A program made the position numbers and the translations under genes. Of a stretch of DNA of 64,000 nucleotides, positions 29,976 to 59,665 are shown piece by piece. The stretch is from NCBI RefSeq assembly GCF_000340215.1, contig NW_006921535.1:4891528-4955527 (forward strand), in the 5' to 3' direction. The stretch comes from Pseudocercospora fijiensis CIRAD86 (Eukaryota > Ascomycota > Dothideomycetes > Mycosphaerellales > Mycosphaerellaceae). The notes beneath the pieces are model-generated. The model was given only the letters and a program-made list of their open reading frames with translations. It searched no databases and had not been told where the DNA came from. Position 1 is the first letter of the stretch; every line of letters begins with the position of its first letter.

Positions 29976-30172
29976 TATAAGAAGGGTATATTAGTAGGTA
30001 GATAGGGTAGTAGTAGGTATAAGTAGTATTCGATAAGGAGCTAGGAGGAGAGGGAGGAAGGCGGGCAAGTTAGCCTATTACTAAGCGCTAAGCCCTACCT
30101 AAGGCATTAAGACCCTAGCTTTACTCGAGCCTAGTTATATACTAATTACGTGTAACCTCTTTAGTCCTAATA
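29976..30172 (-). repeat. Gyp2-b 3' LTR
   Basis: 197 bp, from TATAAGAAGGG to TTTAGTCCTAATA; preceded on the left by CTATA. Confidence 0.9.
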
Positions 30173-34400: not shown

Positions 34401-36660
34401 TAATAAGCGGAAGTAGATAGCGGTCCTTAATAGTAACAGCATTAAGTCTACGGTAATTAACGTATAAACGCAGGCTACTATCCTTCTTAGGAACAAACAG
34501 GATTAGTATACTAGCAGGGCTGTTACTATACTAAATTCGACTATTAGCTAGGTTCTTATCTAGGTACTTACGTAGTATAGCAAGCTCGCGTTTACTAAGG
34601 TTGTAGAGGGGCCTAAAGGGGACCTCTTTGCCCTCTATAATATTAATCTTATAATCCGTCTCTTTGAATATAGGCAATATCGATACTAGGTAGTGTTTAA
34701 ATACGTTAATATAAGTTTCGCGAATAGGCTATAGGATACGAGCGAGCTAATTAGGATCTACACTATTAGGGGGCATAGGTTTATCGTTATCTCTACCGAG
34801 AAGATTAGCCGTCGGATTAGCTAAGGCAGGTATTAGGTTGCCGATAAATAGGACCCTAATATCGTTAGGGCACTCGCTAGTATTAATATGTTTAATGTCC
34901 TCTTTCCTAGCGATCCTAAATCGCTACTATTAGAGGCCTAAGTCTACAACTATAGCGTAGTGCTTAAGAACAGGGTTGCTAATAATAATATCGGATAGGA
35001 GGCTGTCTATGTCTACTGCGTAGGTAGTAAAGTCTAGTAGGCGCTTATTACCGAGGTCGTCTCTTAGGACTGTAGGAATATAGTAGGCCCTATAGGTTAA
35101 GTGCCGAGCGTTATTAGGCTAAGCAAGGGTTAGTAGGTTAGCCCTATCTAATTGTCGAAGGTCTAATTGCTTAGCTAGGCGATAGCTAATAAGGGCACTA
35201 ACTGAATTTCCTAGATCTAGTATAACCTTAGTCTTATAGTTAGTTCTATACGTGTCCTATATAAGATAGGTACGTATAATAGCTAGCACAATGTCGATAG
35301 TCTTACGCCGTACGAGGCTAACAGTTAGTGCGGCGCTTATTCTTTTTTCGAAGGTTAGCCTATAGGGGTAGCGTTAGCTACTAAGAGGTGCTTTCGGTGC
35401 TCGGCGGTAGTACGGTCGATTCGGGCCTAATCCCTAGGTTTATCGTATTAGCCTAGTAGATAGCTAGTACTGTTATAGTTAAAGCATTTCAATCCGGTTA
35501 GGAGGTTGCTATAGCTATTGTTGTTAGTAGAGCGGTTAGTGCTATAGGGATACGAGCCCCTTCTACGGCCCCTATCGCGGCCTCCTCTATATAGCCGCCG
35601 GCTACGGCCTCTTCTACGGTTATTGTTACTGTTCCTATTATTATTAGCATTGCTATTTTAGTAGGAACCTTAGTTTCCTCCGCGGGCACTACGGTTGCCG
35701 CGGTTAGTACTAGCTAGTCGGATCCTCGATTCTAGTCGTTACTAGAGCTAAACAGCTCGTTTAGCTATTTCTACTTCGACTATAAATTAAATACGTATAA
35801 GGTTAGCCTATTTAAACACACGGCGGCGGTCTAGTTTAAGGACTAATTCCTATCTTAGTTTAGGTCGTATCTTAGATATCTAGATAGAGTCGGTCTTAGG
35901 TAGCAAATCGTCCTTAAGGGTCTTTAGATAGGCCTCGAAGGATCGAGAGGTTTAGTCGGCCTTTTGTTTAGTACGTAGGTATTAGTCTTAGGCGTGCTAC
36001 TAGCGTAATATAGGGTTACTAAGGGTGTTTAGTATAATAGTCTTATAGTCCTACTACTAAATAGCGGTCTAATTATTAAGGGAGTTAAAGTGGTTATCCT
36101 AGGTGCGTTTTAGGTCGCTATTAATATACTATATAGTATAGACGACTAACGAATAGTCGTCTAGAAGGGCCCTCGGTATATTTCGCTAGTTAAGCTTATA
36201 GTTACGAATATAGTCGTTATATTGCTTTCGACTAGAGCTATTAAACATAGTATAGTCCTTAAGTTTAGCATCCTTCTTTTAAACAGTTAGTAAGGGAGGC
36301 CCTACTACTAGTTTAGTATTAGTTATTAGGGACTCCTATAGGCGGCAAATCTCGAGGAGATTATCCTTTAGCTATTGTTCTTAACGTAAGGTAGTAAGCC
36401 TGTTTTAGGTAGCTTCTTAAAGTCTCGCTACTAGCTAGGGGCTAAAGGCTAGTTAGCTATATTAGCGATTAATAATATTATTATAAACGTCGTCGATAGG
36501 CAATTCTAGATTATCGCCTAGAATTACAGGTTCTTTATTAATAGGCTCTATGCTACTAGTATTGTTATTGCTAGCGCTACTAGTAGCGCCGCGGTTATTG
36601 TTATTGCTTCGTAATAAGCCGGCTATTGCAATAAGGGGTAATACCGATAATATATTATAG
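31433..36660 (-). pseudogene. Gyp2-b gag and pol, degenerate
   Basis: Same order as in Gyp2-a but on the minus strand: gag from about 36660 to 35350, with a His/Cys-damaged knuckle near 35480 and a basic Gly/Arg region at 35498-35689; pol from about 35330 to the TAA at 31433-31435. RT is at about 34050-34680, RNase H around 33400-33750, integrase around 32150-32800 and chromodomain around 31480-31620. The Pro/Thr repeat in the gag N-terminus is shorter here than in Gyp2-a. TAG stops throughout. Confidence 0.8.
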
Positions 36661-36839
36661 GCCCCTATAGTGCGGATATAGCGGAATTAGTAGGTATCGG
36701 CTTAGTACGATTAATTTAGTATAATAGGCCGTATAGAAGGCCTTACTTAATAATTAGTATAGTTGTTTCGACAGAACAGTACGCACAGGTCCCGTTCTTC
36801 GGGCGTAATATAGTTAAATCGATAGTTTTCGTAGCTATA

Positions 36840-37036
36840 TATAAGAAGGGTATATTAGCAGGTAGATAGGGTAGTAGTAGGTACGAGTAGTATTCGATAA
36901 GGAGCTAGGAGGAGAGGGAGGAAGGCGGACAAGTTGGCCTATTGCTAAGCGCTAAGCCCTGCCTAAGGCATTAAGGCCCTAGCTTTACTCGAGCCTAGTT
37001 AGATACCAATTACGTATAACCTCTTTAGCCCTAATA
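36840..37036 (-). repeat. Gyp2-c 3' LTR
   Basis: 197 bp from TATAAGAAGGG to TTTAGCCCTAATA. Confidence 0.9.
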
Positions 37037-38244
37037 CACGCTTCCCTTCTAAAGGCCGCGCCCTCGTGGCTAGTCTATATCTAATCCCAACCTCTATTGC
37101 TACTAACTTAGTAGGTTCGACAAGCCGCTTAGTCCGCGCTAAATTAAATACGCAACTACCTAATCACATAACTATACTAAACCTCACCTTCTAATACTAT
37201 ATCCAACTCTAACTACGCTATCCTTATATATAATAAAGTAATACACAACTAACAGAATTAAGGACTATCGACTAATTATAATACGAGCGCGCCTTCCCTG
37301 CTATAATAGGTAGGCGTACGAGGTATTGTAGTACTGCCTCCGTTCTAAGTAATATCGTACGAGTTCTTTGCGTCTACTCTATAAGACCTAGAAATGTCCG
37401 CTTCCGAGGGTTGTTCTTATTGTTACGAGGGCTATTATTTACTATCGTAGTTTTACTAGCCCTAATTAGTTAGGTTTAGTAGCCTTCAATTGTTAATCTT
37501 ATTTTATCTTTTTAAAAAAATACAGTTCGTCTAGTTTCTATAGGTAAAGGCTATTATAAGTGCAATAGTTAAGGTTCGCCTCGCTTAAAGGGTTAGAAAG
37601 ATCGAGGAGTAACCTATTATCCGCAAGATCGACCCCGGCTAGCTTAGCTCTATAGTTTTTGCCCTTAGTTAGTCTATTAGTCGCTTAATCTTTTAGGCGG
37701 CTTAAAGTTTTAATTAAACCCTTAGTAGGTTCAATCTTTTAACTTAGTTAGTATAGTACTTTAGGCTCGTAGTATAGGTAAGGTTATGCCTATAGGCGTA
37801 GTAATAATAACAAGTAAGGTTAGCAATAGTAGCGAGCAAGTAATGTCGACAATAGCGGCGCTAGCCGTCTTAGCGCTAACTTTACCTTGTTCCTCGTTTT
37901 CCTTTTTTTAACTAGTAATACACTCCGCAATACTGTTACTAATATAGCCGCGCCGGCCGCCGGCATACTACTAGCTCGTAGCGCGACACTATTATCTTTA
38001 TTACCGTTATTCGTACGCGCGCGCGTATCGCTAATTGCCTAGGCTTCGAGGCTCTATAGGATAAATAGACAAGAGGGGGACCTATAGGGCTCGGTAGTAG
38101 AGAGGTAGATATCTTTTAGAAGAGCAGGGGATTAGTTAACGCGTTATAGCACGCTAGTGTAGTCTTATTGTCCTAGTTTGCCGGCCTCTAATTAGTTAGC
38201 TAATAGTACCCCGGGGGTGCTATTAATTCTAAGCCTTAGTAATA

Positions 38245-41200
38245 TTACGAGCTTTTAGCCTTCTTCTTGTTCTTTACGCTAGTCTAATACTTATCTAATA
38301 ACTCGGCTATATCCTCGAAGGAGTCTTTAGCCTCCTACGAGTCCTATTTAGGTAAATAGCCTTACCATCTTAAGAGGTATTCCTTCTTGCCTTGTCTAGT
38401 CCGATGCTTTAGAATACGTTCTATAGACTATAGCTCTTTACTATTAGCTAAGACTTCTTCTAACTTAGTAGGCGCTTTATCGCCTTTACGCTAGTAGTAT
38501 AGTTTAAGAAGGGAGATATAGAAGGTGTTATAGATAGTGTAATAAGGTAGAAGCTATAACTAGTAGGCCTAGCTATTGCCCTTCGGTTCTCGGATGCGGA
38601 ATAGGCTAATAAATCGTAGTACTAGTTTAGGGCGTGTTTTGCTATTAGGTAATAGGTGTTTGCGGATACGGAGGTTCTTTGTATTAAGTGTAACTATATC
38701 GCCTTGTTTAAATATTATTAGTATATAACGCTTATCGTAGTAGGCCTTTTAGTATTCTTAAGCCTTTATTAACTTCTCGGCTATCTTAGTATAGATTTCT
38801 CGCATCTTCTAGACACGTTCTATTGCCGCTAGTGTCTCTAGTACTTAACGCGCCTCCCTTTCCTTACGCTCGGCCTCGAGCGATAGGGGGTCCTACGGTA
38901 GTAAAGGGTTGCTTCCTATTATTACGAAATAAGGCGATACCTTAGTAGATAAGTAGACACTATTGTTATATACGAATTCGGCTAGTTATAGAAGGTTAAC
39001 CTATCTATTAGGGTCCTCCTTATTAACGTAGCTTCGTAAGTACTGCTATAGGGTAGCATTCTGTCTCTCGGTCTAGCTATCGGTTTATAGATAGAATGCT
39101 ATAGTCTATAGATAGGCGATACTCAAGTCTTAGCTATAGGCATATCTTACTCTAATAATATAACACAAATATCGAGCCTCGATCGGAGACTATCCCCTTA
39201 CGGGTTCCCTAATAGCCACAGAAGATGTTATTCTATAGCGACTTAGCTAGGTTAATAGCCGTCTAATCCTTCCGAGCGGGGATATAGCGAGCGCCCTTAG
39301 TAAACCGGTCTACGACGACTAGGGTAGCATTAAAGATGTCTTTGCTTCCTCTTCGTTTAGTAGGAGGAAGACCTATAATAAAGCCCATTATAAGTTCTAT
39401 AAACAGCTTCTCTAGAACAGGGAGTAAAGACAACTCGCCAAATAGTAAGTGCTTTAGTGCTTTAACTCGCTAGTATACTATACAGGTCTGCATATACTCC
39501 TTTATATACCGCTTACTATTTAGCTAGTAGTATATACGCGATAGTAACTCGTACGACCTCTCTATACTAAAGTAACTAGCGAGCTTACTATTATAGTGCC
39601 TCTTTAAAAGCTCTTATCTAATCGATTGTTTAGCGGGGATATAGTATCTGCCCTTAAACTTTAAGTAACCTTTGTCGTCGATCGACTAATTATTATTACT
39701 CTTACTAGATCGAGTCGCCCGTCCACTTACAAGCCTATTAATACGCTCGATAGCAAAGGCGTCCCTCTGCTAAGCACGTAACAGCTTATCTATAAACGAT
39801 TAACTATCCCTATTTGTAAGGTTATTTAATAGCACCCGTACTATCGAACGAGGTACGTATTATATATATCTAATAGTACTAGTAGCCGGATTAACTACAA
39901 CCTCTTCTATAGTACTATCGCGATAGATAGCAATATCTTTAATCGAGTCGTTATAGCTCGAGCGATCTACGTCCTTTTTAACGTATACTAGAAGAACGAC
40001 AACTCCGCTATAGTATTTGTTGCTGCCGCGGGGTCCGGAAGTCCGCTTATCCTACGCTTGCTTTATAGCAAGGTCTATAGCAATCTTATACTATAGGGTT
40101 AGAAACAAAGAATTAATATATTAGGTCTCGCTATCGTAATTAGGTCGCCTCGATAGGCTATTAGCAGGGTTACTTACGCCTAGCCGATATAATATATTAA
40201 AATCGAATCCGGCGAGGTAGACGGCCTATCTAGCCTATCGACCTATAACCCGTATAACCTTAGTAATCCTACGTAGGTTGTTATAGTCTATATAGACCTA
40301 AATAGGGTACTAAGCACTATCGAGATAATAGCGCTAGTGCTTAAAGGCCTCTATAATAGCTAAGAGTTCTTGCTCGTAGGTCTCGTAGCGGCGGTTAGTA
40401 TTAATTATCTTCCTTAAGAAGAAGGCAATCGGGTACTAATAATAGTCCTTGTCCGACTGCTAAGATATAATAGCCGAGATAGCAAACTGTAAAGCGTTAG
40501 TCTTAATGCGAATCTGTTTGCTTAGTATAAAATAGTATAATAAGGGGACTTTAGTAAAGGGCTTCTTTAAACCGTTAAAAGCGGCTTATGCTTTATTAGT
40601 CTATTTAAACTCTCTAGATAGATTAGCCTTAGTTTTAGTAAGCTTAGTTAATAGCATTACATGCCTCGAATAGCCCTTAATAAAGCGGCGGTAGAAGTTA
40701 GTAAAACCGAGGAACGACTACAGCTCCTTAATTAACGTAGGAACAGGCTGTTTAGTAATAGTTTTAACCCGATTAGGATTAGCCTTAATACTATTAGTTA
40801 ATACGATAAAGCCGAGGAACGCTACCTCCTTAGTAGCGAAGGTGCATTTAGAAGGCTTGTAATATAGTCTATAGGCCCTTAGGCGATCGAGTACCTTGCG
40901 TACTATAGCCTAGTATTCTATAATATTAGGCGAATAGGTGTAAACTAGGATATTATCTAGGTAAACTATATAGAGATAGTCTACTAGGCCCGAAAGGGCC
41001 CGATTGATATAGGACTAGAAGGTTATAGGGGCATTAGCTAGCCTAAATAGTATAACTAAGTACTCGAAATAGCTATAACGAGTGCGGAAGGCCGTCTTCT
41101 ATTCGTCGCCCTTGCGAATACAGATACGGTAATAGGCGTCCTTAATATCTAATATAGTATAGTAGTAAGTACTAGAAAGGCGATCGAGGGTCTTATTAAT

Positions 41201-43490
41201 AAGCGGAAGTAGGCAGCGGTCTTTAATAGTAACAGCATTAAGTCTACGGTAATTAATATATAGGCGTAGGCTACTATCCTTCTTTAGTATAAATAGGATA
41301 GGGGCGCTAGCAGGGCTATTACTATACCGTATCCGGCTATTAGCTAGGTTTTCCTCTAGATACTTACGTAATATAGCAAGCTCTCGTTTACTAAGGTTGT
41401 AGAGGGGACTAAAAGGAACCTCCTTACCCTCTATAATATTAATCTTATAATCCGTCTCTTTAAATATAGGCAATGTCGATACTAGGTAGTATTTAAACAT
41501 ATTAATATAGGTTTCTCGAATAGGCTCTAGTATACGAGCAAGCTAATTAGGGTCTATACTATTAGGGGGCACAGGTTTATCGTTATTACTACCGAGCAGG
41601 TCGGTAGTCGGGTCCGCTAAGGCAGGTATTAGGTTGCCGATAAATAGGACCCTAATATCGTTAGGGCACTCGCTAATATTAATGTATTTAATATCCTCTT
41701 TCCTAGCGATTCTAAATCGCTACTATTAAAGGCCTAAGTCTATAACTATAGCGTAGTGCTTAAGAACAGGGTTGCTAATAATAATATCGGATAGGAGGCT
41801 GTCTATATCTACTGCGTAGGTAGTAAAGTCTAGTAGGCGCTTATTGCCGAGGTCGTCCCTTAGAACTATAGGAATATAGTAGGCTCTATAGGTTAAGTGC
41901 CGAGCGTTATTAAACTAAGCAAGGGTTAGTAGGTTAGTTATAGGCAATTGTCGGAGGTCTAATTGCTTAGCTAGGCGATAGTTAATAAGAGCGCTAACTG
42001 AATTTCCTAGGTCTAGCGTAACCTTAGTCTTATAATTAGTACTATATAAGTCTTGTATAAGACAGGTACGTATAATAGCTAGCACAATGTCGATAGTCTT
42101 ACGCCGTACGAGGCTAATAGTTAGTACGGCGCTTATTCTTTATTCGAAGGTTAGCCTATAGGGGTAGCGTTAGGTACTAAAAGGTGTTTCTTATTTTCGG
42201 CGGAAGTACGGTTAATCCGTGCCTAGTCCCTAGGTTTGTCGCATTGGCCTAGTAGATAGCTAGTGCTATTACAGTTAAAGCACTTCAATCCGGTTAGTAG
42301 ATTGCTATAGCTATTATTGTTAGTAGAGCGGTTAGCACTATAGGGATACGAGCCTCTTCCTCGGCCCCTATTACGGCCTCCTCTATATAGCCGTCGGCTA
42401 CGGCCTCTTCTACGGTCGTTGTTACTGTTCCTATTATTAGCGTTGTTGTCTTAGTAGGAACCTTGATTTCCTCCGCGGGCACTACGGTTGCTACGGTTAG
42501 TACTAGTTAGTCGGATCCTCGACTCTAGCCGTTACTAAAGCTAAACAGCTCGTTTAGCTGTTTCTACTTCGACTATAAATTAAATGCGTGTTAGATTAGC
42601 CTGTTCGAATATACGGCGGCGGTCTAATTTAAGGACTAATTCCTATCTCAATTTAGGGCGTATTTCGGAGATCTATATAGAATTAGTTTTAGCCGGAAGG
42701 CTATCCTCGAGGGTCTTTAAATAGGCTTTAAATAAGCGAGCCGATTAATTAGTCTTTTGTTTAGCTCGAAGGTACTAGTCCTAAGCGTATTGTTGCCTTA
42801 GTATAGGGTTTCTAAGAGTGTCTAGTATAATAGTCTTATAGGTTTTCTACTAAACAGTAGCCTAGTCGCTAAGGGAATCGAAATAATTATCCTAAGTGCG
42901 TTTTAGGTCGCTATTAATGTACTATATAGCCTATACGACTAAGGAATAGTCGTCTAGTAGCGCTCTTAGTACGTTACGCTAGTTAAGTTTATAGTTACGA
43001 ATATAGTCGTTATACTGCTTTCGACTAGAGCTATTAAATACAGTACAGTCCTTAAGCTTAGTATCTTTCTTTTAAACGGGTAGTAAGGAAGGTCCTGCTA
43101 TCGGCTTAGTATTAGTTGTTAGGGCTTCCTATAGGCGGCGAATTTCGAGGAGATTATCCTTTAGCTATTATTCTTAACGCAAGGCAGTAAGCCTATTCTA
43201 AGTAGCTTCTTAAAGTCTCGCTACTAGCTAGGGGCCGAAGGCTAGTTAGTTATATCGACGGTTAACAATATTATTAAGAATGTCGTTAACGGGCAACGAT
43301 AGGTTATCCCCTTCGACTATAGGTTCTTTAGTAGGCCCTATAGTAGGCTCTTTAGTAGGAGGCACTTTAGCAGGCCCCGTACTACTAGTATTGTTATTGC
43401 TAGCGCTACTAGCGGCGCCGCGGTTGTTATTGCTTCGTAATAAGCCGGCTATTGCAATAAGGGGTAACACTAATAATATATTATAGGCCC
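38245..43490 (-). pseudogene. Gyp2-c gag and pol, degenerate
   Basis: Gag begins near 43490; the first 74 codons (43246-43470) are open and show the Thr/Pro/Lys repeat and the conserved LPVNDILNNIVNRRYN. A basic Gly/Arg region lies at 42294-42482. The pol RT N-terminus is the longest open stretch of the family on this strand (41099-41500), reading [32 protein letters not shown] and LDIKDAYYRICI, stopped by TAG where Trp is expected. The catalytic box, integrase and chromodomain follow as in Gyp2-a, ending with TAA at 38245-38247. Confidence 0.85.
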
Positions 43491-43727
43491 CTATAGTACG
43501 GATATAGCGGAATTAGTAGGTATCGGCTTAGTGCGATTAATTTAGTATAATAGGCCGTATAGAAGGCCTTGCTTAATAATTAGTACGGTTGTTTCGATAG
43601 AATAGTACGTATAGGTCCCGTTCTTCGGGCGTAATATAGTTAGATTAACGGTCTTCGTAGCTATACCGCTAAAAGCTTAAAATAAGGACTATCTAGCTAC
43701 TACTCTTAAAGGGTAGATCGAATACTA

Positions 43728-43924
43728 TATAAGAAGGGTATGTTAGTAGGTAGATAGGGTAGTAGTAGGTACGAGTAGTATTCGATAAGGAGCTAGAAGG
43801 AGAGGGAGGAAGGTAGACAAGTTAGCCTATTACTAAGCGCTAAGCCCTACCTGAGGCATCAAGGCCCTAGCTTCACTCGAGCCTAGTTATATACTAATTA
43901 CGTATAACCTCTTTAGCCCTAACA
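43728..43924 (-). repeat. Gyp2-c 5' LTR
   Basis: 197 bp from TATAAGAAGGG to TTTAGCCCTAACA. Confidence 0.9.
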
Positions 43925-43991
43925 CTATACCGCTAAAAGCTTGAAATAAGGGCTATCTAGCTACTACCCTTAAAGGGTAGATCGAATACTA

Positions 43992-44188
43992 TATAAGAAG
44001 GTTATATTAGTAGGTAGATAGGGTAGTAGTAGGTATAAGTAGTATTCGATAAGGAGCTAGGAGGAGAGGGAGGAAGGCGGGCAAGTTAGCCTATTACTAA
44101 GCGCTAAGCCCTGCCTAAGGCATTAAGACTATAGCTTTACTCGAGCCTAGTTATATACTAATTATATGTAACCTCTTTAGTCCTAATA
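43992..44188 (-). repeat. Gyp2-b 5' LTR
   Basis: 197 bp, ends AGTCCTAATA at 44188, followed by the target duplication CTATA (44189-44193). Confidence 0.88.
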
Positions 44189-46416: not shown

Positions 46417-46725
46417 TATAAGAAAATAGATATATAGCAACGTATAGAACACCCTCTACTAATCGCAGTAGTAGATAGTAGAACTAAACCGTGCCTTTCT
46501 AAGAATAGGGCAGAGCGTTTACTATTAACTAGGCTACGTACGGATAGTATATCTACCGAGCTAGCTACCGAGTATATCCGTATAAGCGACCGAGCTTCCC
46601 CGCGTATACGCTAAGTAGGCTTTGCGCTAGCGGGGTAGTACCGCAGTATATGTAATAATATTACATAATTGTTATATAGGCTTACTAAGGCAGGATAGGA
46701 GACTTTACTTACTTAGGTTCTTATA
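46417..46725 (-). repeat. Gyp3 3' LTR
   Basis: 309 bp, near-identical to 60649-60957; differences visible to me are mostly CA/TA or TG/TA. Confidence 0.92.
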
Positions 46726-47145
46726 ATTATCTCCTTCCCCCGGTATAGCTATCCTAGCTATAGGGCAATATAGTAAATTATACTATCTCTTATACTCTAC
46801 GCTTTGTATACATATCTTATCCGTACCTATCGCTAGGCTATAGTTGCTAGGCACGTTATAATTTGCCTCGTAGTTGCTTATTTATTTCTAGATTTAAAGC
46901 GTAGCTACTTCTAGTACTAGCTAGAGGTTGCCTAAATTTCTAAGAACGCGGTAGCTACGCGAGAAAGCAAGCTATCCGAAAGCGAGGCGAGTATTTAAAG
47001 CATTCGAAGCCCGCTTAATAACTTCTTCTTTTTTTAAGCGCTCCGAATACTACCTACCCGCGCCTCGCCTACTCCCCCCTCGCGTCCCCCTAGTATTACT
47101 TAAAGATTTTTCTTTTTTAAATATCTATTAAAAAACATTACTAGT
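46726..47145. other. Gyp3 region between 3' LTR and antisense ORF
   Basis: 420 bp holding the polypurine tract and, presumably, the promoter of the antisense ORF. The 100 bp before the start (47030-47145) are pyrimidine-rich with CCTCGCGTCCCCC and T runs, as in many fungal core promoters. Interpretation as promoter is inference. Confidence 0.4.
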
Positions 47146-48070
47146 ATATCTACCCCTACGCGTGCTATAGGTAAGCGTGCCGTAGGCGCTAGCCCTACGA
47201 CCCCTACTACGCCTACCTAGCGCCTACTAAAAGTCCTAGAGGGCTATACTCGTTGCTTTAAGTATATAATAGCTAATAGTACGTTTTCTCGCTACTTGCT
47301 ATACGTATACGCTTCGTAACTAACTTGCTTTAGTAGATCTAGCTAAGCTTTATATAAGCGGCAATATAGACCCTACTACTAAGCGCAACTATAATCGCTA
47401 CTATAGTAGCTATTATATCTATACGCCTATTACGGCCCGCGCTCTCGTATCGCTACTAATACGTATCCGTACCGTACGCGCTATACGCGACCTATACGAC
47501 CTAGATAGCTACGACTCTATCGAGGAGTCTAACGAGGCCTTAGAGGCACTCTAGGCCGAGCTAGACGCCGTAATCGTATATATGTTTCTTATATGCTTCG
47601 CTTACGCTTCGTATACTAACCTCGATATTAGTTATCCTATCTACGCTTAATGTCTTCTATACTAATAAGAATAAGGTAACCCTAGGTAGTAAAGCCCTAG
47701 CCCGTAAGGGGGCCGCTAGCGGGTCCCTTACGGATATTAACCTCCTTAGTACCTTCGAGTATATCGGTACTAACTTAGCCGGCTTAGTAGAGATCGGTCG
47801 TTAGGTATAGTTTTTTCTATAGCCTCGTTTTACTTACGCTTCGTATACTAACCGTACTAGAACCTCGCTTAGCGCGTCGGCGCTAACGCTATCGCTACTA
47901 TCGATACCGCTATAGGCATCGAAAAGGAGGACGAGGCTAAGGATTCTAAGAATAAGTAGGGTAGGCGGCCCGCCGTCGCCGCGCCTACGCGGGGCTACCT
48001 TTATATATACTAGGCCGATAGGCCCTTTTTTTAGTAGCGAAACGAGCACGTATCTACTATTTTTTCTTAA
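47146..48070 (+). pseudogene. Gyp3 antisense ORF with three introns, Cys-rich protein
   Basis: On the strand opposite to pol, four exons (47146-47278, 47334-47579, 47632-47804, 47861-48070) join into one frame of 253 codons ending TAA at 48068. Introns are 55, 52 and 56 bp: intron 1 GTACGT...CTAAC...TTTAG; introns 2 and 3 share TACTAAC before the TAG acceptor. The donor of intron 2 now reads ATATGT, as expected from GTATGT after RIP. The start is ATA (former ATG). All inner stops are TAG. Exon 1 has a Pro/Thr-rich start and RCFKY (former CxxC); exon 2 starts with KRNYNRYYSSYYIY, probably former Cys/His ligands now Tyr; the tail is Lys/Glu-rich then basic. It resembles, from memory only, Cys-rich hypothetical proteins common in fungal genomes. 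Its stop lies 25 bp from the pol stop, convergent. Confidence 0.75.
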
Positions 48071-48095
48071 GTTTTATTTTCTTTTATTTTAATTA

Positions 48096-51000
48096 CTACC
48101 TACGCTTACGCTTGCGCTTCGCTTAAGCTTCGAACTCGTCTAACGCTATAGAATCTTTAATATAAATAGCTAGTTCCTAAGTATTATATTCTTTAGGCTA
48201 ACCTCGCTACTTAATAAGGTAGTACGCTTTCCGCTTTTTTATCTTCTTAGCTACGATTGTTTCTACCTACTACTCGTTACCTTTAGCGATAGGTATACTA
48301 ATCTTATACTCCTTACTATCGCGCCTATACTAAGGCTCGAGGAGGGAAATATAGAAAACATTATAGATCTTCGTACTTAACGGTAGCGCTAGGCGGTACG
48401 CCTACGCTCCGACTACGTCGATAATATAAAAAGGCCCTATATACTTCGGGCTAAGTTTATTCTTTAGGATATCTAAGCTAATATTCTTTATCGATAGTAA
48501 GACTAGGTCGCCTATACTATATATCTTAGTAGTATAGTATATATTGTATTACTTAGCCTAGTATTCTGCTACTTTCTACTAGCGTTCTATAAGCGTTTTA
48601 TACGCTTTCTATAGTCGCTCCGTAGCGTCGATAGCTGCTAGTACCCTTCCCTTAGTTAGCTCGTCCCGAGCTAGTAGCTTATTCGCTCTTAGTATTAAAT
48701 TAGGATTAAAGCCGTAGAGTATCCTAAAGGGGCTTATACGTAACGTAGGATAAACGCTATTATTATAGGCAAACTCCGCCTAAGGCAACAATTTAGCCTA
48801 ATTATCCTAGTTCTTAGAGTAATAGTATCGTAGGTATTGCTCTAGAGTCTAGTTCGCGCGTTCGGTTTGCCTATTAGTCTAAGGATAGAAGGCTATACTA
48901 AGCCTACGCTTTATATACGCTTCGAAGCAGAAGTCGCTCTAAAACTAGCTAGTAAAAAGCGATCTACGATCGCTAATAATGCCTAATAGTACTCTAAAAC
49001 GCCTAATTACCTCCCTTTAAAGGATATCCGCGAGTTCTACTACTATATACTTCTTCGTCGTTAGGATAAAGAGGCTTATCTTCGTATAGCGGTCGACTAT
49101 TACGAGGATCGTAGTATATACGTAGGTACCGAGCTTGCTCGGCGAGAGATTAGTAATAAAGTCTATTATTAATTCTTACTACGGTTAGGTCGGTATAGGT
49201 AGCATAGCGAGCTCGCCGTATAGGCAATAGCGCTTTGCCTTCGACTATTAACAAATTCTATAGGTACGGATATAGGCCGTAATATCCTTAGCTATCTTCG
49301 GCTAGAAGTACTTTCGGCGTATTAGGTCCGTAGTCTTAGCTATACTAAAGTGTCTAGCTAAAGGGTCGTCGTAGTATATACGTATTAGCTACGTACGTAA
49401 TACGTAGTCCTTAGGGATATATAGCGTATCGCCGTAGTAAATAAGGTTACTACGACGGAAATAGCTAGGCGGGAGGTTAGAACTACTTAACGAGGCTAAG
49501 CTACCCGACGGTAAGCTTATCTCGTATAAGCCTCCTCCTCTCGCTTGCTCTAGCTATTATAAAGCGTATACGAAATTAAGGATTATATTAGGCGTCTCGT
49601 AGTAGGGCCCGTTATTCTAACGATAGTAGCCGCTACTCTTATAGGGCTACTAATAAAACTCTTACGTTCCGCTAGCGCTATACTAGCGTCTCGTATCTCT
49701 ATATATATAATAGAGATGCGATTTATAATCGGCTCGATATCCTCGGGTAGATTTTACTATAGAGCTAGTTTCGACTATAATATAGGGAGAAGGTTGTTCC
49801 CCGCCTACAACTCGCTCTTATAGTCGCTACGTCGCGAAGGTATATCGGCTAGATTTCGTTTACTAGCCCGATACTTAATAGTAAAGTTGAAAGGTATAAG
49901 GAAGGTTGCTTATCTTACCTACCTTCCGATAAGCTACTTTATCTTTATAAAGCCCTTAAGATTAGCGTAGTCGATAACTACGCGGATCGTATACTAGGCG
50001 CCGTCGAGGTACGGGCGCTAATACTTAAAGGACTCGATAACCGCTAGGAGCTCCGAGTTATAGGTCTTATAATTAATCTCTATAGGGATTATTTTTCGTA
50101 ACTAGAAGGCTAGGGGGTACTAGTTCCTATCTTTACTCTATTATAATATAATCCCTACTAAGGCGAACGTAGAGGTATCGGTTTCGATATATAGGGGCTT
50201 CGTAGGATTATAGTATCGCAATATCGAGGCCGAGCTAAAGGTAGCCTTTAGCTAGTAGAACGCTTGCTCCTCGCTTTCGCCCTATAGGACCTGCCCTAGC
50301 TTTCGGCCGGCTATTTACGGCTCCTTTTAATAGGGCGGTTAGTAGTATAACGATCCGGGAGTAATTAGGGATAAACCTCCGATAGAAGTTATAGAATCTA
50401 AGGAAGGATTAAACCTTCTTTAGCGTTAATAGGCGAGGCTATTCGTTAATAGCGTTTACCCTACGCTAATCTATCGATACGCCTTCGGTACTAACGATAA
50501 ACACTAGGAATTCGACCTCTTTCTTCTAGAAGGAACATTTCTTCCTATTTGTATATAATACAAACTTTCTAAGCCGCGTAAGGGGAGCGCGTACGTCTCG
50601 TACGTAGTCCTCTCGCGTTTTACTATAGATAAGGATATCGTTAAGATAGACGATATAGCAAATATTAACTAGGCTAGCTAATACCCTATTAATATATCCT
50701 TAAACTATAGCAGGAGCATTAGTAAGCCTAAAAGGTATTACCTTATACTCGAAGTGCCTATACCGCGTACGGAACGTAGTCTTCTACTCGTCGCCCTGCT
50801 TAATATAGATATAGTAATATATATCCTAGAGGTCTAAGGACGTATACTATTTAGCGTCTTTAAGCCTATTAAGCGTTTCGCTAATAAGAGGCAGGGGGTA
50901 ACGATTTTTAATAGTAATCTCGTTTAATCCCCTATAATCGACGTAGAGTCTTAGACTACTATCCTTCTTTAGTACGAATAGGATCGGCGTACCTACCTCG

Positions 51001-51750
51001 CTTATACTAAGCTAGATCTAATTATTCTCTAAGGCTAAGCTTAGGTAATTACGAAGGTCGCTAAGCTCTCTTCCTAAAGAATAGTAGAGAGGTTTATATA
51101 GCGGCTTTATTCTAGGGATTAGGTCGATTATATACTCTACGTCTTCGAGGAGCTTACGTCGCGCTTCGGGCGTTATAGTAAAGACGTCTTCGAAGTCTTT
51201 AAATTCTTCTAGTAAGGAGGAACCCTTAGCAATATCGCGGAGCTAGCGAACGCTAATCTTATATACGTATAGAGCGTTACGTATATCCTTCTAGAATTCC
51301 TATAGTTCCCGTACGCGTATCGTACGCGCTATAGCTTCGTTCCTATAGGTCTAGGTATCTATCGAGCTATCGACGATTACCTTTTAATTGCGCCTCTAAG
51401 GCCTAATAAGAATAATATTAGGGAGAGGCATTTCGAAAGCATAGAATACTCCGATAGCGACGCGTTCTTAGCCTATAGAGTCGGCGATCCGTAAGCGTAG
51501 ATAATACGCTCTATAGTAGTATCCTCGGTCGCCCTAGAAACTATCGGTACTAGGTAGTACGGTATTAATAATCCGCTAAGGCTAGTATCGTAGAACGAAT
51601 TCTTAAGATACTATATTAATATCAGTAGCATTATCTAGCAAGTATTCGACGGCAACTTCCCTTTCTTACGTTACGATTACTCTACGTACGCGTCCCGTAG
51701 GTACTACTACTACTAAGCTACTTAGTTAAGATTCCGTACCTATCCCTAGC
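48096..51750 (-). pseudogene. Gyp3 pol: RT, RNase H, integrase, chromodomain
   Basis: Minus strand. RT fingers are at about 50900-51100 and the catalytic box VYLNDILIYS at 50625-50655, where the first Asp of YxDD is Asn (codon 50640-50642). RNase H follows (YNSELLAVIESFKY at about 50030; YTIRVVIDYANLKGFI and RYRASKRNLADIPSRR at about 49830-49990). The integrase core is at about 48980-49200. At the end is a chromodomain (VETIVAKKIKKRKAYYLIK-TAG-RGQPKEYNT at about 48170-48290), then a Lys/Arg tail KRKRKRR before TAG at 48096-48098. Many TAG stops elsewhere. Confidence 0.85.
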
Positions 51751-52535
51751 TCCTAGGAGGTACCTTATCTTTTCCTTTAGCCTTCGGATCGTTCTTCTTT
51801 TCCTTAGCGTTAGCGGCGACCTTATATACCGTAGGGTTATCGTCTTTCTAGAGGTAGCGGTTCGGGTATACGTTCTTATAATAGCCTTTCTAGCGATAGC
51901 TATAATATTCGACCTTGCTAATATCGTACCCGCCTTACGAGTTATCGTTCTTCGAATACTTCCTACCTACTCTACGGTCGCGATTTAACTACGGCTTATA
52001 GGCGTAACTATTAGATCGACGCTTCTTACCTTTACTACCTCCGGTTTTATCGTAGTTACGATCCTTACGTTTACTAGACAGCTTATTAGGGGTCTCGATA
52101 CGCGTCGTAAGCTCTACGAGTTTGTAACGCGTCGTTAGTACCGTATAGTATTTAATAATCGCGCTACGAATCGCTAGCTAGAGTTTAACGAGGAGATAGC
52201 GGATCCTATACTCCTCGCTATAGTTACTAAGTTAATCTTCGAGTACTACGAGCTTAAGGGCAAAGCTTTAAACTAACTATCCCTTACGCTAGCGGGCTGC
52301 CTTATACTCGAGGGTTATATCTAGTATACGGTTTATAGGGTCCTTAACGTAGTCCCGATAGAAGGTTTTAAAGTCCTAGTAGGTATAATTCTATAGGTCC
52401 TCGAGGCTATTTTCGTTATACTACCGCTCCTACGTATCGCCTACGAGGTATATAATACTATAAAGTACCTTGCTCTCGTCCGTATAATAGGTAGATCCGG
52501 ATAGCGTAAAGGTAATAAAAAGTTCTCGAAGGAAT
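51750..52535 (-). pseudogene. Gyp3 gag, C-terminal part with zinc knuckle
   Basis: Near 51870-51915 the minus strand reads YYSYR-TAG-KGYYKNVY, the exact spacing of a CxxCxxxxHxxxxC knuckle with every Cys and His replaced by Tyr (TGC to TAC, CAC to TAC). It is followed by a Lys-rich stretch NAKEKKNDPKAKGKDK. Gyp2-d interrupts the gene on the right at 52536-52540. Confidence 0.75.
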
Positions 52536-52540
52536 CGCCT
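52536..52540. other. Target duplication of Gyp2-d, left copy
   Basis: CGCCT, matching 59666-59670. Confidence 0.92.
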
Positions 52541-52737
52541 TATAAGAAGGGTTATATTAGTAGGTAGATAGGGTAGTAGTAGGTATAAGTAGTATTCGAT
52601 AAGGATCTAGGAGGAGAGGGAGGAAGGTAGGAGAGTTAGCCTAACGCTAAGCGCTAAGCCCTACCTAAGGCATCAAGACCCTAGCTTTACTCGGCCTAGT
52701 TATATACTAATTACGTATAGCCTCTTTAGCCCTAATA
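52541..52737 (-). repeat. Gyp2-d 3' LTR
   Basis: About 197 bp, TATAAGAAGGG at the left edge right after CGCCT. Confidence 0.9.
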
Positions 52738-53990
52738 TACGCTTCCCTTCTAAAGGCTGCGCCCTCGTAGCCTTTCTATATTCTAATCTCGACCTCTATT
52801 ACTACTAACTTAGCAAATCTAGTAAGCTGCTTAGTCGCGCTAAATTAAACACTTAACTACCTAATTATATAACTATATTAAACCTTACCTTCTAACGCTA
52901 TATTCAACTCTAACTGCGCTATCCTTATATATAATAAAGTAATATATATCTATAAGAATTAAGGACTATCGACTAATTATAATACGAGCGCGTCTTCCCT
53001 ACTATAATAGGTAGGCGTACGAGGTATTATAGCACTGCCTTCGTTCTAAGTAATATCGTTTCGAGTTCTCTACGTCTACTCTAAAAGACCTAGAAATGTC
53101 CGCTCCGAGGGGTTGTTCTTATTATTACGAGGGCTATTATTGTTCGTAGTTTCGCTAGCCCTAATTAGTTAGGTTTAGTAGCTTTTAATTGTTAATTAAT
53201 CTTATCTTTTTAAAAACACAGTTCGTCTAGTTTCTATAGGTAAAGGCTATTATAAGTGTAATAGTTAAGGTTCGCCTCGCTTAAAGGATCGGAAAGATCG
53301 AGGAGTAACCTATTATCCGCAAGATCGACCCTAGCTAGCTTAGCTCTATATTTTTGCCCTTAGTTAGTCTATTAATCGCTTAACCTTTTTAGTTCCTAAG
53401 CCCTTCGAATGGCTTAACCCTTTTAACCTAGTTAGTATAGTGCGTTTTAGCCTTAGGCTATAGTATAGGTAAGGTTGTTCTTATAGGTATAGTAACGATA
53501 ATAAGTAAGGTTAATAATAGCAGTAAGCAGGTAACGTTAATAATAGCGGCGCTAGCCGCCTTAGCTCTAACTTTACCTTGTTCTTCCTTTCCTCCTTTAG
53601 CTAGTAATATACTTAGTAATACCGTTACTAATATAGCCGCGCGCCGTCTTCTAACATACCGCCGGCTCGTACTACGGCGCTATTATTATTATTGCTAGTA
53701 CTATTCGCCTATACGCGCGCCGCCTCCGCCGACCGCCTAGGCCTTAGAGCCTCGATAGGACGTAGAAATAAGAGGGGGCGCTAAGAGAAGGGTCTTATAG
53801 GGTGCGCTAGTAAAGAGGTAGATTCCTTAAAAGAGTAGGCGGTTAGTTAATAGTTATAGCGCGCTCGTTAACACTCGGTACGCGTTTACTATAGTAGTAT
53901 AGTCTTATCTTTGCTAACAATTGCTCGCCTCTAATTAGTTAGCTAATAGCACCCCGAGGGTAGCATTAATCCTAGGCCTTTCTAGTAACA

Positions 53991-56900
53991 TTATAGGCTC
54001 TTAGCCTTCTTCTTGTTCTTTATACTAGTCTAATACTTATCTAATAACTCGGTTATATCCTTAAACGAGTCTTTAGCTTCCTATAAGTCCTATTTAGGCG
54101 AATAGCCCTACTATCTTAATAGGTATTCCTTCTTGCCTTGTTTAGTCCGATGCTTTAGTATACGCTCTATAGACTATAGCTCTTTACTATTAGCTAAGAC
54201 TTCTTCTAACTTAGCAGGCGCTTTATCGCCTTCGCGCTAGCGATATAGTTTAAGGAGGGATACGTAGAAGGTATTATAGATAGTATAATAAGGAGGAAGC
54301 TATAACTAATAGGCCTATACGGAGGAGCCCTTAACTTCTCGAATGCGGAACGGGCTAATATATCTTAGTACGAGCTTAGGCCTTGTTTTGCTATTAGGTA
54401 ATAGGTGTTTGCGGATGCGGAGGTTCTTTGTACTAAGTATAACTATATCGCTTTGCTTAAAGGTTATTCGTATATAGTACTTATCGTAGTAGGTCTTTTA
54501 GTACTCTTAAGCCTTTATTAGCTTCTTAGCTATCTTAGTATAGATTTCTCGTATCTTCTAGACACCTTCTATTACCGCTAGTATCTCTAGTACTTAACGC
54601 GCTTCCCTTTCCTTACGCTCGGCCTCGAGCGTTAGTAGGTCCTATAGTAGGGTAGCGTTCTAGCCTATTATAGCTATATATAGTAAAGCCTTAGTTAATA
54701 AGTGTACGCTATTGTTACATACGAATTCTATAGGCTATAGGAGGTTAACCTAGTCCTCGGGGTTCTTATTAATATAGCTACGTAGATACTGCTATAGGGT
54801 AGCATTCTACCTCTCTATTTAACCGTTAGTCTATAGATAGAAGGCCGTTAATATCCGATGCTTTAGTCTTAGCTATAGGCATATTTCGCTCTAATAGTAC
54901 GATATTAGTATCGATCTACGATTAGACACTATCCCCTTAGGGGTTCTCTAATAGATATAGAAGATGCTACTCTATAGCGCTTCTACTATATTAATAGCAG
55001 TCTAATCTTTCCGCGCCGGGATGTATCGAGCGCCCTTAGTAAATCGATCTACTATAACAAGGATAGCATTATATATATCCTTGCTACCCCTACGCTTAGT
55101 AGGAGGAAGGCCTATAATAAAATCTATTATTAGCTCTACGAATAGCTTCCTAGGAATTGGAAGTAAAGACAACTCGCTAAATAGTAAGTGCTTTAGTGCT
55201 TTAACTCGCTAGTATACTATATAGGTCTGTATATATTCCTTTATATGCCGCTTACTATTTAGCTAGTAGTATATACGCGATAGTAGCTCGTACGACCTCT
55301 CTATACTATAGTAAATAGCGAGCTTACTATTATAGTGTCTCTTTAAAAGCTCTTATCTAATCGATTGTTTAGCGGGGACATAGTATCTGCCCTTAAACCT
55401 TAAGTAACCTTTGTCGTTAATCGACTAATTGTTACTCTTGCTAGATCGAGTCTTTCGCCTACTTGCGGGCCTATTAATACGTTCGATAGCAAAGGCGTCC
55501 CTCTACTAAGCCCGTAATAGCTTATTTATAAACGATTAACTATCCCTATTCGTAAGGTTATTTAATAGCACCCTCGCTACCGAACGAGGTACGTATTATA
55601 TATATCTAATAGCACTAGTAGCTAGAACTACTATAACCTCTTCTATAGTGCTGTCGCTATATAGGCTATTACTATAGATAGCAATGTCTTTAATCGAGTT
55701 ATTATAGCTCAAGCGATCTACGTCCTTTCTAACGCGCACTAGAAGAACGATAACTCCGCTATAGCAATTGTTGCCGCCGTAGGGTCTAGAAGTCCGCTTA
55801 TCCTACGCTTACTTATTAACAATATAGGCTATAGCAATCTTATACTATAAGGTTAGAAACAATGAATTAATAGATTAATAAGTCTCGCTATCGTAATTGG
55901 GTCGCCTCGATAGGCTATTAGCAGGGTTACTTACCCCTAGCCGATATAGTATATTAAAATCGAACCCGGCGAGGTAGACGGCCTATCTAGCCTATCGACC
56001 TATAACCCTTATAACCTTAGTAATACTACGCAGGTTGTTATAGTCTATATACACCTAAATAGTGTGCTAAGCACTATTAAGATAGTAGCGCTAATACTTA
56101 AAGGCTTCTACGATTACTAAGAGCTCTTACTTATAGGTCTCGTATCGACGCTCTACATCGATTATCTTCTATAAAAGGAAGGCAATCGGGTGCTAATAGG
56201 TGTTATTAGCCTATTATAATATAATAGCTAATATAGCGAACTATAAAGCGTTAGTCTCAATTCGGATCTGCTTATTTAGTACGAAATAGTATAATAAGGG
56301 GACTTTAGTAAAGCGTTGCTTCAGACTATTAAAAGCGGCTTGTGTTTTGTTAGTCTATTTAAACTCTCTAGAAGGGTTTGCCTTAGTCTTAGTAAGCTTA
56401 GTTAGTAGTATTATATGCCTCGAATAGGCCTTAATAAAGCGGCGGTAGAAGTTAGCAAAACCGAGGAATAATTAGAGCTCTTTAATACTAGTAGGGGTTA
56501 GTTATTTAGTAATTGTTTTAATCCGATTAGGATTAGCCTTAACACTATTAGTTAAAACAAGGAAGCTGAGGAAGGACACCTCCTTAGTAGCGAAGGTGTA
56601 TTTAGAAGGCTTATAATATAAGCTATAAGCCCTTAGGCGGTCGAGTACCTTACGGACTATAGCCTAGTACTCCGCAATATTAGGTAAATATATATAGACT
56701 AGGATATTGTCTGGGTAAACTATATAGAGGTAGTCTAATAGGCCGGACAAGGCCCGATTTCGGATTAATATAGGACTAGAATATTGCAGGGGTATTAGCT
56801 AGCCCAAATAGTATAACTAAATACTCGAAATAGCTATAATAAGTGTAGAAGGCTGTTTTCTATTCGTCGCCCTTACGAATACAGATATAGTAGTATATAT

Positions 56901-59230
56901 CCTTAATATCTAACGTAGTATAGAAACAGGCGCTAGAAAGGCGATCGAGGGTCTTATTAATAAGCGGAAGTAGACAGCGGTCCTTAATAGTAATAGCATT
57001 AAGTCTACGGTAATTAATATATAGACGTAGGCTACTATCCTTCTTTAGAACAAATAGGATTAGTGCACTAGTAGGGCTGTTACTATACTAAATTCGACTA
57101 TTAGCTAGGTTCTTATCTAGGTATTTACGCAATATAGCAAGCTCTCTTTTACTAAGGTTATAGAGTAGCCTAAAAGGAACCTCCTTGCCCTATATAATAT
57201 CGATCTTATAGTCTGTCTCTTTAAATATAGGCAACGTCGATGCTAGGTAGTGTTTAAATATATTAATATAGGTCTCTCGAATAGGCTATAGTATACGAGC
57301 AAGCTAATTAGGGTCTATACTATTAGGGGGCATAGGTTTATTGTTATCTCCGCTAAGTAGGTTAGCAGTCGGATTAGCTAAGGCGGAGGCTAGTATTAGG
57401 TTGCTAATAAACAGGACCCTAATATCGTTAGGGCACTCGTTAATATTAATATATTTAATGTCCTCCTTCCTAGCGATTCTAAATCGCTACTATTAGAGGC
57501 CTAAGTCTATAGTTATAGCGTAGTGTTTAAGAACAGGGTTTCTAAGGACAATATCGGATAGAAGGTTGTCTATATCTACTACGTAGGTAGTAAAATCTAA
57601 TAGGCGCTTATTGCCGAGGTCGTCTTTTAGAACTACAGGAACACAGCAGGCTCTATAGGTTAAGTGCCGAGCGTTATTAAACTAAGCAAGGGTTAGTAGG
57701 TTAGCCCTATTTAGTTGTCGAAGGTCTAATTACTTAGCTAGGCAATAGCTAATAAGGGCACCAACTAAATTTCCTAGATCTAGCATAACCTTAGTCTTAT
57801 AGTTAGTTCTATACGTATCTTATACAAGATAGGCGCGTATAATAGCTAGCACAATATCGATAGTCTTACGCCGTATAAGGCTAATAGTTAGTGCAGCGCT
57901 TATTCTTTTTTCGAAGGTTAGCCTATAGGGGTAGCGTTAGCTGCTAAGAGGTGCTTTCGGTGCTTAGCGGTAGTACGGTTAATCCGAGCCTAATCCCTTA
58001 GTTTGTCGTATTAGCCTAGTAGATAGCTAGTGCTGTCGCAGTTAAAGCACTTTAATCCGGTTAGGGCATTGCCGTAGCTATTATTGCTACTATTATTAGC
58101 CGAGCGGTTAGTACTATAGGGATATAAGCCCCTTCTACGGCCCCTGTTACGGCCTCCTCTATATAGCCGTTAGCTACGGCCTCTTCTACGGTTATTGTTA
58201 CTATTCCTATTGTTAGTAGTGTTGTTTTAGTAGGAACCTTAGTTTCCTCTATAGGCACTACGATTGCCGCGGTTAGTACTAGCTAGTCGGATCCTCGATT
58301 CTAGTCGTTATTAAAGCTAAATAGCTCGTTCGGCTATTTCTACTTCGACTATAAATTAAATGCGTAATAGATTAGCTTGTTCGAATACATAGCGGCGGTC
58401 TAATTCGAGAATAAGCTCCTACCTAAGTTTTAGGCGTATCTTAGAGATCTATATAGAATTAGTCTTAGCCGGAAGGTCGTCTTTAAGGGTCTTTAGATAG
58501 GCCTCGAATAAGCGAGCCGATTAATTAGTCTTTTGCTTAGCTCGAAGGTACTAGTCCTAAGCATATTATTGCCTTAGTATAGGGTTTCTAAGGGTGTCTA
58601 GTATAATAGTTTTGTAGGTCTGCTACTAAACAGCAGTGTAGTTATTAAGGGAGTCGAAATAGTTATCCTAGGTACGCTTTAGGTCTCTATTAATATACTA
58701 TATAGTATAGACGACTAACGAATAGTCGTCTAGAAGGGCTCTCGGTGCATTTCGCTAGTTAAGCTCGTAGTTACGAATATAGTCGTTGTATTGCTTTCGA
58801 CTAGAGCTATTAAATACGGTATAGTCCTTAAGTTTAGCATCCTTCTTTTAGATAGGGACGGGTAGTAAAGAAGGCCCTACTACTAGTTTAGTATTAGTTA
58901 TTAGAGACTCCTATAGGCGGCGAATCTCGAGGAGGTTATCCTTTAGCTGCTGCTCTTAGCGTAGGGCAGTAAGCCTGTTTTAAATAGCTTCTTAAAGTCT
59001 CCCTACTAGTTAGGGCCTAAAGGCTAGTTAGCTATATCGTCGATTAATAATGTTATTAAGGATATCGTTAATAGGCAATTCTAGATTATTACCTAGAACT
59101 ATAGGTTCCTTAATAGACTCTATACTACTAGTGTTGTTATTGCTAGCGCTACTAGCGGCGCCGCGGTTGTTGTTGCTTCGTAATAAGCCGGCTATTATAA
59201 TAAGGGGTAATACTAATAATATATTATAGG
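53991..59230 (-). pseudogene. Gyp2-d gag and pol, degenerate
   Basis: Gag runs from about 59230 to 57910, with the Gly/Arg region at 58061-58258 and knuckle near 58030; pol from about 57890 to TAA at 53991-53993. RT lies at about 56620-57240, RNase H at about 56000-56300, integrase at about 54700-55350 and chromodomain at about 54040-54180. The motif order matches Gyp2-a. Compared with Gyp2-a the open stretches are shorter, so this copy looks at least as heavily mutated. Confidence 0.82.
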
Positions 59231-59468
59231 CCCCTATAGTACGGATATAGCGGAGTTAGCGAGTATCGGTCTAGTGTAATTAACTTAGTATAATAGGCCG
59301 TATAGAAGGCCTCGCTTAATAATTAGTACGGTTATTCTAACAGAATAGTACGTATAGGTCCCGCCTTAGGCGCAATATAGTTAGATTAACGGTTTTCGTA
59401 GCTATACCGCTAAAAGCTTAAAATAAGGACTATCTAGCTGCTACCCTTAAAGGGTAGATCGAATACTA

Positions 59469-59665
59469 TATAAGAAGGGTTATATTAGTAGGTAGATAGG
59501 GTAGTAGTAGGTGTAAGTAGTATTCGATAAGGATCTAGGAGGAGAGGGAGGAAGGTAGGAGAGTTAGCCTAACGCTAAGCGCTAAGCCCTACCTAAGGTA
59601 TTAAGACCCTAGCTTTACTCGGCCTAGTTATATACTAATTACGTATAGCCTCTTTAGCCCTAATA
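59469..59665 (-). repeat. Gyp2-d 5' LTR
   Basis: About 197 bp, ends AGCCCTAATA, followed by CGCCT; the 67-bp leader with the palindrome lies just left at about 59402-59468. Confidence 0.9.

What the first reader, a model, noticed from the sequence alone, without database searches (positions are those of the whole stretch)
47146..48070. Antisense, intron-containing accessory ORF inside a fungal chromovirus
Seen: between the pol end and the 3' LTR of Gyp3, the strand opposite to pol holds four exons that fuse into one 253-codon frame only when three introns of 55, 52 and 56 bp are removed. Each intron has a CTAAC branch site near a TAG acceptor. Phases fit exactly, internal stops are only TAG, and the ATA start fits a RIP-mutated ATG. 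Introns cannot survive the element's own genomic RNA cycle in sense orientation, but antisense introns are not removed from that RNA, which explains how they persist. Cys-to-Tyr changes suggest a former zinc-binding protein. Antisense ORFs are known in some plant Gypsy elements; I do not know of a described spliced one in a fungal chromovirus. It could regulate or assist the element.
Basis: partly seen in the sequence, partly recalled or inferred. Interest (0 to 1): 0.88.

Follow-up and report, generated by a model that had tools for sequence, protein, structure and literature searches.

The report
Spliced antisense gene in fungal retrotransposon
A fungal jumping element carries, on its reverse strand, an extra protein gene interrupted by three introns; selection kept it working until the fungus's own mutation defence broke the copies, and a second related element in the same genome carries a different gene of the same design.

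Summary
Gyp3 is a ~7 kb chromodomain Ty3/Gypsy element on the minus strand; the opposite strand between pol and the 3' LTR encodes a four-exon gene. Its exon 2 lies antisense, 3' of the chromodomain, at 104 of 108 Gyp3-type chromodomain places. In 25 aligned copies the splice sites are largely kept, and shared transversions concentrate on third codon positions in each exon (20/237, 11/237, 48/236; p=1.1e-7). LTR pairs of 11 copies show almost no transversions, so this variation mostly predates insertion: it was a real, selected protein gene. It is now broken: five in-frame TAG columns recur in 24-25 of 25 copies, as context-dependent, near-saturating RIP predicts. Corrections: the frame is supported to about codon 235, not 253; antisense genes at this place are already known in fungi (Boty brtn) and plants. 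New are the multi-intron structure with demonstrated selection, and a second, not detectably related, antisense intron-bearing gene in another chromovirus family of this genome (p=1.5e-13). No homologue was found; no RNA data were at hand. Function is inferred: a Cys-rich, possibly zinc- and nucleic-acid-binding regulator.

The parts
46417..46725 (-). 3' LTR of Gyp3 (309 bp)
   Evidence: Direct-repeat partner in 5' LTRs of other copies
46992..47000 (+). TATTTAAAG box, possible promoter element of the antisense gene
   Evidence: Present in 19 of 20 copies; function inferred
47146..47278 (+). Exon 1 of antisense gene
   Evidence: Frame, codon-position signal, copies
47279..47333 (+). Intron 1 (55 bp)
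   Evidence: Donor GT 24/25, acceptor TAG 25/25, CTAAC 24/25
47334..47579 (+). Exon 2
   Evidence: 105 places in genome, 96 with exactly one TAG
47580..47631 (+). Intron 2 (52 bp)
   Evidence: Donor GT 22/25 (AT in this window), acceptor TAG 25/25, CTAAC 22/25
47632..47804 (+). Exon 3
   Evidence: same length in 25 of 25
47805..47860 (+). Intron 3 (56 bp)
   Evidence: Donor GT 21/25, acceptor TAG 25/25, CTAAC 24/25; length varies by 1-2 nt in 9 of 25
47861..48013 (+). Exon 4 with acidic tract, to the likeliest stop
   Evidence: Codon-position signal and multiple-of-3 indels; frame breaks after ~48024
48093..48098 (-). End of pol
   Evidence: TAG/CAG then TAA in 20 of 20 copies
48099..48452 (-). 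Pol C-terminus with SH3_Tf2-1 and Chromo domains
   Evidence: Pfam on the piece; place
48099..52540 (-). Pol/gag part of this Gyp3 copy, cut at 52540
   Evidence: Match to other copies ends at 52540; RVT_1 on an RT piece

Best explanation
Gyp3 carried a genuine accessory protein gene in antisense between pol and the 3' LTR. It was probably transcribed from its own promoter in the ~420 bp between LTR and start codon (inferred), spliced three times (inferred from kept splice sites and phases) and gave a protein of about 234 residues: Ser/Thr/Pro-rich basic N-terminus, basic six-Cys cluster, a likely helical stretch, acidic tail (read by eye). The introns pass through the RNA cycle because the genomic RNA carries only their complement. 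Purifying selection kept the protein while the family multiplied (shown); RIP then broke every copy aligned here (shown). The likeliest role is a zinc-dependent, nucleic-acid-binding regulator of the element, comparable in logic to brtn, plant antisense ORFs and HBZ (inferred, about one in three). The confidence given is for the gene and its history, not for that role.
For: Exon 2 antisense and 3' at 104 of 108 Gyp3-type chromodomain places. Shared transversions by codon position 20/237, 11/237, 48/236 in 25 copies, each exon peaking at the predicted third position. Shared-transversion N/S 0.32 in the gene, 0.19 in pol. LTR pairs 5 transversions in 3377 sites against a mean 2.3% between copies in the 3' region. 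Kept splice sites. Nine of 11 LTR-paired copies with exact 5-bp target duplications keep the introns (my reading of the flanks). RIP context explains the shared stops and surviving Cys codons. A second family shows the same design.
Against: No transcript or protein evidence. No homologue in any collection searched. Exon 4's predicted frame is not the most open one. Synonymous transversions in exons (0.167) exceed those in its own introns (0.037) and in pol (0.048), which simple purifying selection does not explain. One divergent copy has a frame-breaking 13-nt loss in exon 2. The six-Cys pattern rests on minority residues, down to 1 of 25 copies at one position.
Confidence: 0.87

Rival explanations
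1. A captured host gene: an ancestor of Gyp3 took up an intron-bearing host gene in antisense as passive cargo, with no role for the element.
For: Three spliceosomal introns suggest origin from a genomic gene; antisense uptake would preserve them.
Against: No copy outside Gyp3 in this genome at tblastn sensitivity: of 105 exon-2 places the two not paired with a chromodomain are fragments. Present family-wide and under selection, which passive cargo would not be. An old capture followed by co-option is not excluded.
Confidence: 0.12
2. The gene came from another mobile element inserted antisense into an ancestor and was then kept.
For: Location and the presence of an unrelated antisense gene in Gyp-B would fit repeated insertions.
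Against: No Pfam family and no relative found.
Confidence: 0.1
3. Only the antisense transcript matters (dsRNA or transcriptional interference); the frame is incidental.
For: Antisense transcripts of LTR elements can act as RNA (passages of PMC7264820, PMC10186651).
Against: Codon-position pattern and multiple-of-3 indels show selection on protein. An additional RNA role is not excluded.
Confidence: 0.03
4. A chance frame made of intron-like strings in RIP-mutated DNA.
For: RIP makes TAG the commonest stop, so a TAG-tolerant frame is easy to find; 29 and 32 intron-like strings exist on the two strands of the window.
Against: (exons 1-3).
Confidence: 0.01

Closest known systems
brtn of Boty-like retrotransposons, Botrytis cinerea (Zhao et al. 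2011, Virology 417:248; paper not held; known from passages of PMC7264820, PMC8365987, PMC4227169 and PMC5987419)
   Same: Fungal chromodomain Ty3/Gypsy element; extra gene in antisense between pol and 3' LTR
   Different: Sequence relation and presence of introns in brtn could not be checked; this gene has three introns and its copies are RIP-mutated
Antisense additional ORFs (aORF-3R) of plant Gypsy elements: Grande gene23, RIRE2, Retand TRP28 ORF (passages of PMC7264820, PMC11963269)
   Same: Place and orientation; present in most copies of a family; role unknown
   Different: Plant, mostly non-chromovirus lineages; none of the passages I saw describes introns; no TRP28 or other Pfam match here
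HBZ of HTLV-1 and APH-2/3/4 of HTLV-2/3/4 (passages of PMC10186651)
   Same: Spliced antisense transcript from the 3' side encoding a protein
   Different: Retroviruses of primates, bZIP or other proteins, promoter in the 3' LTR; no sequence relation claimed
Gyp-B antisense gene of the same genome (L031-L033, L044-L046, L049)
   Same: Chromovirus; antisense gene 3' of pol with short CTAAC introns; Tyr/Cys-rich basic block and acidic Ser-rich tail by eye
   Different: hhalign probability 0.4%; at least two introns, both phase 0; longer protein; its 3' LTR was not located

Membership tests
Chromovirus (chromodomain Ty3/Gypsy) | Reverse transcriptase | tested here: met
   RVT_1 E 1.1e-24 on an RT piece
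Chromovirus (chromodomain Ty3/Gypsy) | C-terminal chromodomain | tested here: met
   Chromo 25.6 bits, cut-off 25.1, on a piece with X at stops
Chromovirus (chromodomain Ty3/Gypsy) | LTR pair and target-site duplication | tested here: met
   11 copies with LTR pairs; 9 exact 5-bp duplications, 2 with one mismatch
Antisense additional ORF between pol and 3' LTR (aORF-3R) | Place and orientation | tested here: met
Antisense additional ORF between pol and 3' LTR (aORF-3R) | Present in most copies of the family | tested here: met
   104 of 108 chromodomain places
Antisense additional ORF between pol and 3' LTR (aORF-3R) | Transcribed in antisense | not testable with these tools
   No RNA data held
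brtn family | Sequence similarity to BRTN | not testable with these tools
   BRTN sequence and its paper not held; no similar protein in the collection searched
Zn2Cys6-type zinc cluster | Six Cys in two CxxC-containing halves | tested here: inconclusive
   Cys in 4, 9, 3, 6, 9 and 1 of 25 copies at codons 34, 37, 51, 64, 67, 74, Tyr in nearly all others: C-x2-C-x13-C-x12-C-x2-C-x6-C; first loop longer than in Zn2Cys6 (spacing recalled)
Zn2Cys6-type zinc cluster | Pfam match | tested here: not met
   0 families for three copies read with X, but Tyr replaces most Cys, so the test is weak

The most novel reading that the evidence does not exclude
Chromoviruses of this fungal lineage repeatedly, or anciently, carry antisense, intron-rich accessory genes: the antisense strand is a niche in which a retroelement can keep true spliceosomal genes through its RNA stage, and the products are fast-diverging zinc-binding regulators in conflict with the host.
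Probability: 0.35. Interest if true: 0.78.

Novelty: new variant of a known kind. Interest (0 to 1): 0.62.

Why it matters
Retroelements normally lose introns in their RNA stage. Here an intron-bearing gene was kept, under selection, by lying in antisense, and two families of one genome do it with proteins that show no detectable similarity. ORF finders that ignore splicing, and RIP-mutated copies, will hide such genes; a transversion-by-codon-position test across copies finds them without any intact copy or reconstruction. If expressed in relatives, it makes antisense accessory functions of fungal Gypsy elements testable.

Tried and rejected
Homologues: a profile of eight copies (7998 candidates scored) and one of ten exon-2 rows (1143 candidates) gave nothing at E<=10, whereas an RT piece of the same element gave 4664 of 4817 candidates at E<=1e-5, so the collection does hold related elements. 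PDB: best E 0.086, a fimbrial protein, dismissed. PHROGs: E 0.074 and 0.13, dismissed. Pfam with ten exon-2 rows: two families, one row each, E 0.099 and 3.8, dismissed. Introner-like host introns: an 18-nt module shared by introns 2 and 3 occurs at 85 places, 84 within 1.2 kb of an exon-2 place and the last beside a Gyp3 chromodomain, so it is family-specific. Gyp3-type protein in other families: no significant match in L031-L037 or the other window stretches tested. Homology of the two antisense proteins: not shown. Gyp1-type elements of the window: no clear codon signal 3' of pol in four copies, low power. Frame listing of L031-L037 was cut in the output, so L034-L037 were seen in part only. 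LTR of Gyp-B: not found in the stretch fetched. Structure prediction was not run: a RIP-mutated product without relatives would give a poor model. Rows dropped before counts: L013 (about 830-bp insertion) and L040 (564-bp match) left out of the gene alignments; 42 of 150 chromodomain rows, at 45% identity or less, set aside as other families.

Full report
Setting. The window lies in a 73.9 Mb assembly of 30 contigs. Size and severe RIP would fit Pseudocercospora fijiensis (74 Mb; passages of PMC13041039), but the host was not identified. Gyp3 is on the minus strand: 3' LTR 46417-46725, pol up to 48093-48098, match to other copies ending at 52540 where another element begins. Eleven of the 20 copies fetched have both LTRs within the stretch; they span about 6985-7026 bp, and by my reading of the flanks 9 of 11 have exact 5-bp target duplications and 2 differ at one base. 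Pfam on pieces: RVT_1, SH3_Tf2-1, and Chromo just above its cut-off.

The antisense gene. Exons 47146-47278, 47334-47579, 47632-47804 and 47861-48013 lie on the plus strand, tail-to-tail with pol about 80 bp apart. Exon 2 has 105 places in the genome: 96 with exactly one TAG, 4 with two TAG, 1 with TGA, 1 with TAA, 3 with none. Of 108 Gyp3-type chromodomain places (identity 75% or more; the 42 weaker of 150 rows are other families, and one search scored 150 of 1334 candidates) 104 have exon 2 on the opposite strand within 4 kb on the 3' side, median gap 516 bp. The four without are partial chromodomain matches; one has an intron module of the gene beside it.

Coding test. Transversions cannot come from RIP. 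In 20 copies, transversions shared by at least two copies hit 16/241, 5/241 and 33/240 sites at codon positions 1, 2, 3 (p=1.6e-5), introns 6/163, upstream 14/426. With five divergent copies added (25 in all) the counts are 20/237, 11/237, 48/236 (p=1.1e-7), and each exon peaks at the predicted third position, which supports the phases across the introns. Exon length changes are multiples of 3 except one 13-nt loss in L039; intron 3 varies by 1-2 nt in 9 of 25. In exons 1-3 the predicted frame has about one stop per copy against 2.4-9.4 in the other frames; in exon 4 it has 3.1, and two other frames are more open (1.2 and 0.2), a point against resting on openness there. Shared-transversion N/S is 0.32 in the gene (20 copies) and 0.19 in pol (17 copies). 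LTR pairs of 11 copies differ by 5 transversions in 3377 sites, against a mean of 2.3% between copies in the 3' region: most variation arose in replicating lineages before insertion, under selection.

Broken by RIP. CpA and TpG stand at 0.09-0.36 of expectation in the five Gyp3 copies counted. In 12 copies, CCA is almost gone (0.2% of CCA+CTA) and TCA nearly so (1.1%), while ACA keeps 8% and GCA 19%. That explains why internal TAG columns at codons 25, 118, 184, 188 and 217 carry a stop in 25, 24, 25, 25 and 25 of 25 copies, while Cys codons survive in 1-9 of 25 at six clustered positions. Pol behaves alike: 36 of the 86 pol codon columns with any stop have one in every copy (17 copies).

Introns. 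Donor GT in 24, 22, 21 of 25, acceptor TAG in 25 of 25 for all three, CTAAC in 24, 22, 24. Introns 2 and 3 of this window share 21 nt around the branch site (300 shuffles: at most 10); an 18-nt core occurs at 85 places, all beside Gyp3 copies. Their presence in target-duplicated copies shows that the RNA cycle did not remove them, as expected if only the antisense transcript can be spliced.

A second case. Six chromodomain places at 42-45% identity form another family, Gyp-B. Here too the strand opposite to pol holds a gene 3' of the chromodomain: transversions 16/396, 12/396, 64/396 over three exon stretches (p=1.5e-13; six copies, some incomplete there), with introns of 47-50 bp bearing CTAAC and TAG and, in most copies seen, GT (one reads AT), at phase 0. 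All six have exon 2 antisense to the chromodomain, as does a seventh, divergent copy, L049; an eighth place, L050, gave only an exon-2 match. The 240 nt before intron 1 are less cleanly open (1.4 TAA per copy), so the start of that gene is unsettled; its 3' LTR was not located. Profile comparison of the two proteins gave probability 0.4%.

What it does. No homologue in the 5.8-billion-protein collection, none in Pfam. Basic Cys cluster, likely helical stretch and acidic tail, read by eye, suggest a zinc-dependent nucleic-acid-binding regulator; this is inference. A TATTTAAAG box about 150 bp upstream of the start is present in 19 of 20 copies and may belong to its promoter.

Against known work. 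[quoted passage not shown] Spliced antisense genes are known in HTLV (passages of PMC10186651). In ten full-text searches I saw no intron-bearing antisense gene described in a fungal LTR element; I read only listings and passages, and the Boty paper itself was not held, so this is not proof of absence. A term search of PMC3562529 (transposable elements of M. fijiensis) and of PMC13041039 found no occurrence of 'antisense'; likewise 'antisense' and 'intron' in PMC3248453, LTR retrotransposons in fungi.

Unexplained. Synonymous transversions in the exons (0.167) exceed those in the gene's own introns (0.037), upstream sequence (0.035) and pol synonymous sites (0.048).

Noticed in passing
L031-L033, L044-L046, L049 (C5:4511448, C10:3501567, C10:852151, C2:1113988, C10:869732, C2:3959193, C4:3095858): A second chromovirus family (Gyp-B) carries an unrelated-looking antisense, intron-bearing gene 3' of pol; third-position transversions 64/396 against 16 and 12 of 396.
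   Followed up: partly
47146-48013: Shared synonymous transversions in the exons are 3-4 times those of the gene's own introns, its upstream sequence and pol; deeper coalescence, recombination or constrained introns are possible.
   Followed up: partly
47580-47631 and 47805-47860: Introns 2 and 3 share 21 nt around the branch site in this copy and long runs in many others; intron duplication or conversion is possible.
   Followed up: partly
Gyp3 copies genome-wide (12 counted): RIP here depends strongly on the base 5' of CA: CCA and TCA nearly absent, GCA 19% and ACA 8% left.
   Followed up: yes
29909-44188: LTR-like repeats at 29909, 36773, 43661 and 43925 suggest a tandem array of another Gypsy family sharing LTRs, ending in two adjoining LTRs.
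   Followed up: no
52541-59665: Another Gypsy element (repeat ends 98% alike) begins exactly where the Gyp3 match stops, so it probably sits inside Gyp3.
   Followed up: no
G000 C2:5896582-5901483: Two Gyp3 copies in opposite orientation about 3 kb apart with identical scores in three searches (nearly, 40): a possible palindromic duplication.
   Followed up: no
L013 (C9:1366444): This Gyp3 copy has an insertion of about 830 bp at the end of the antisense gene.
   Followed up: no
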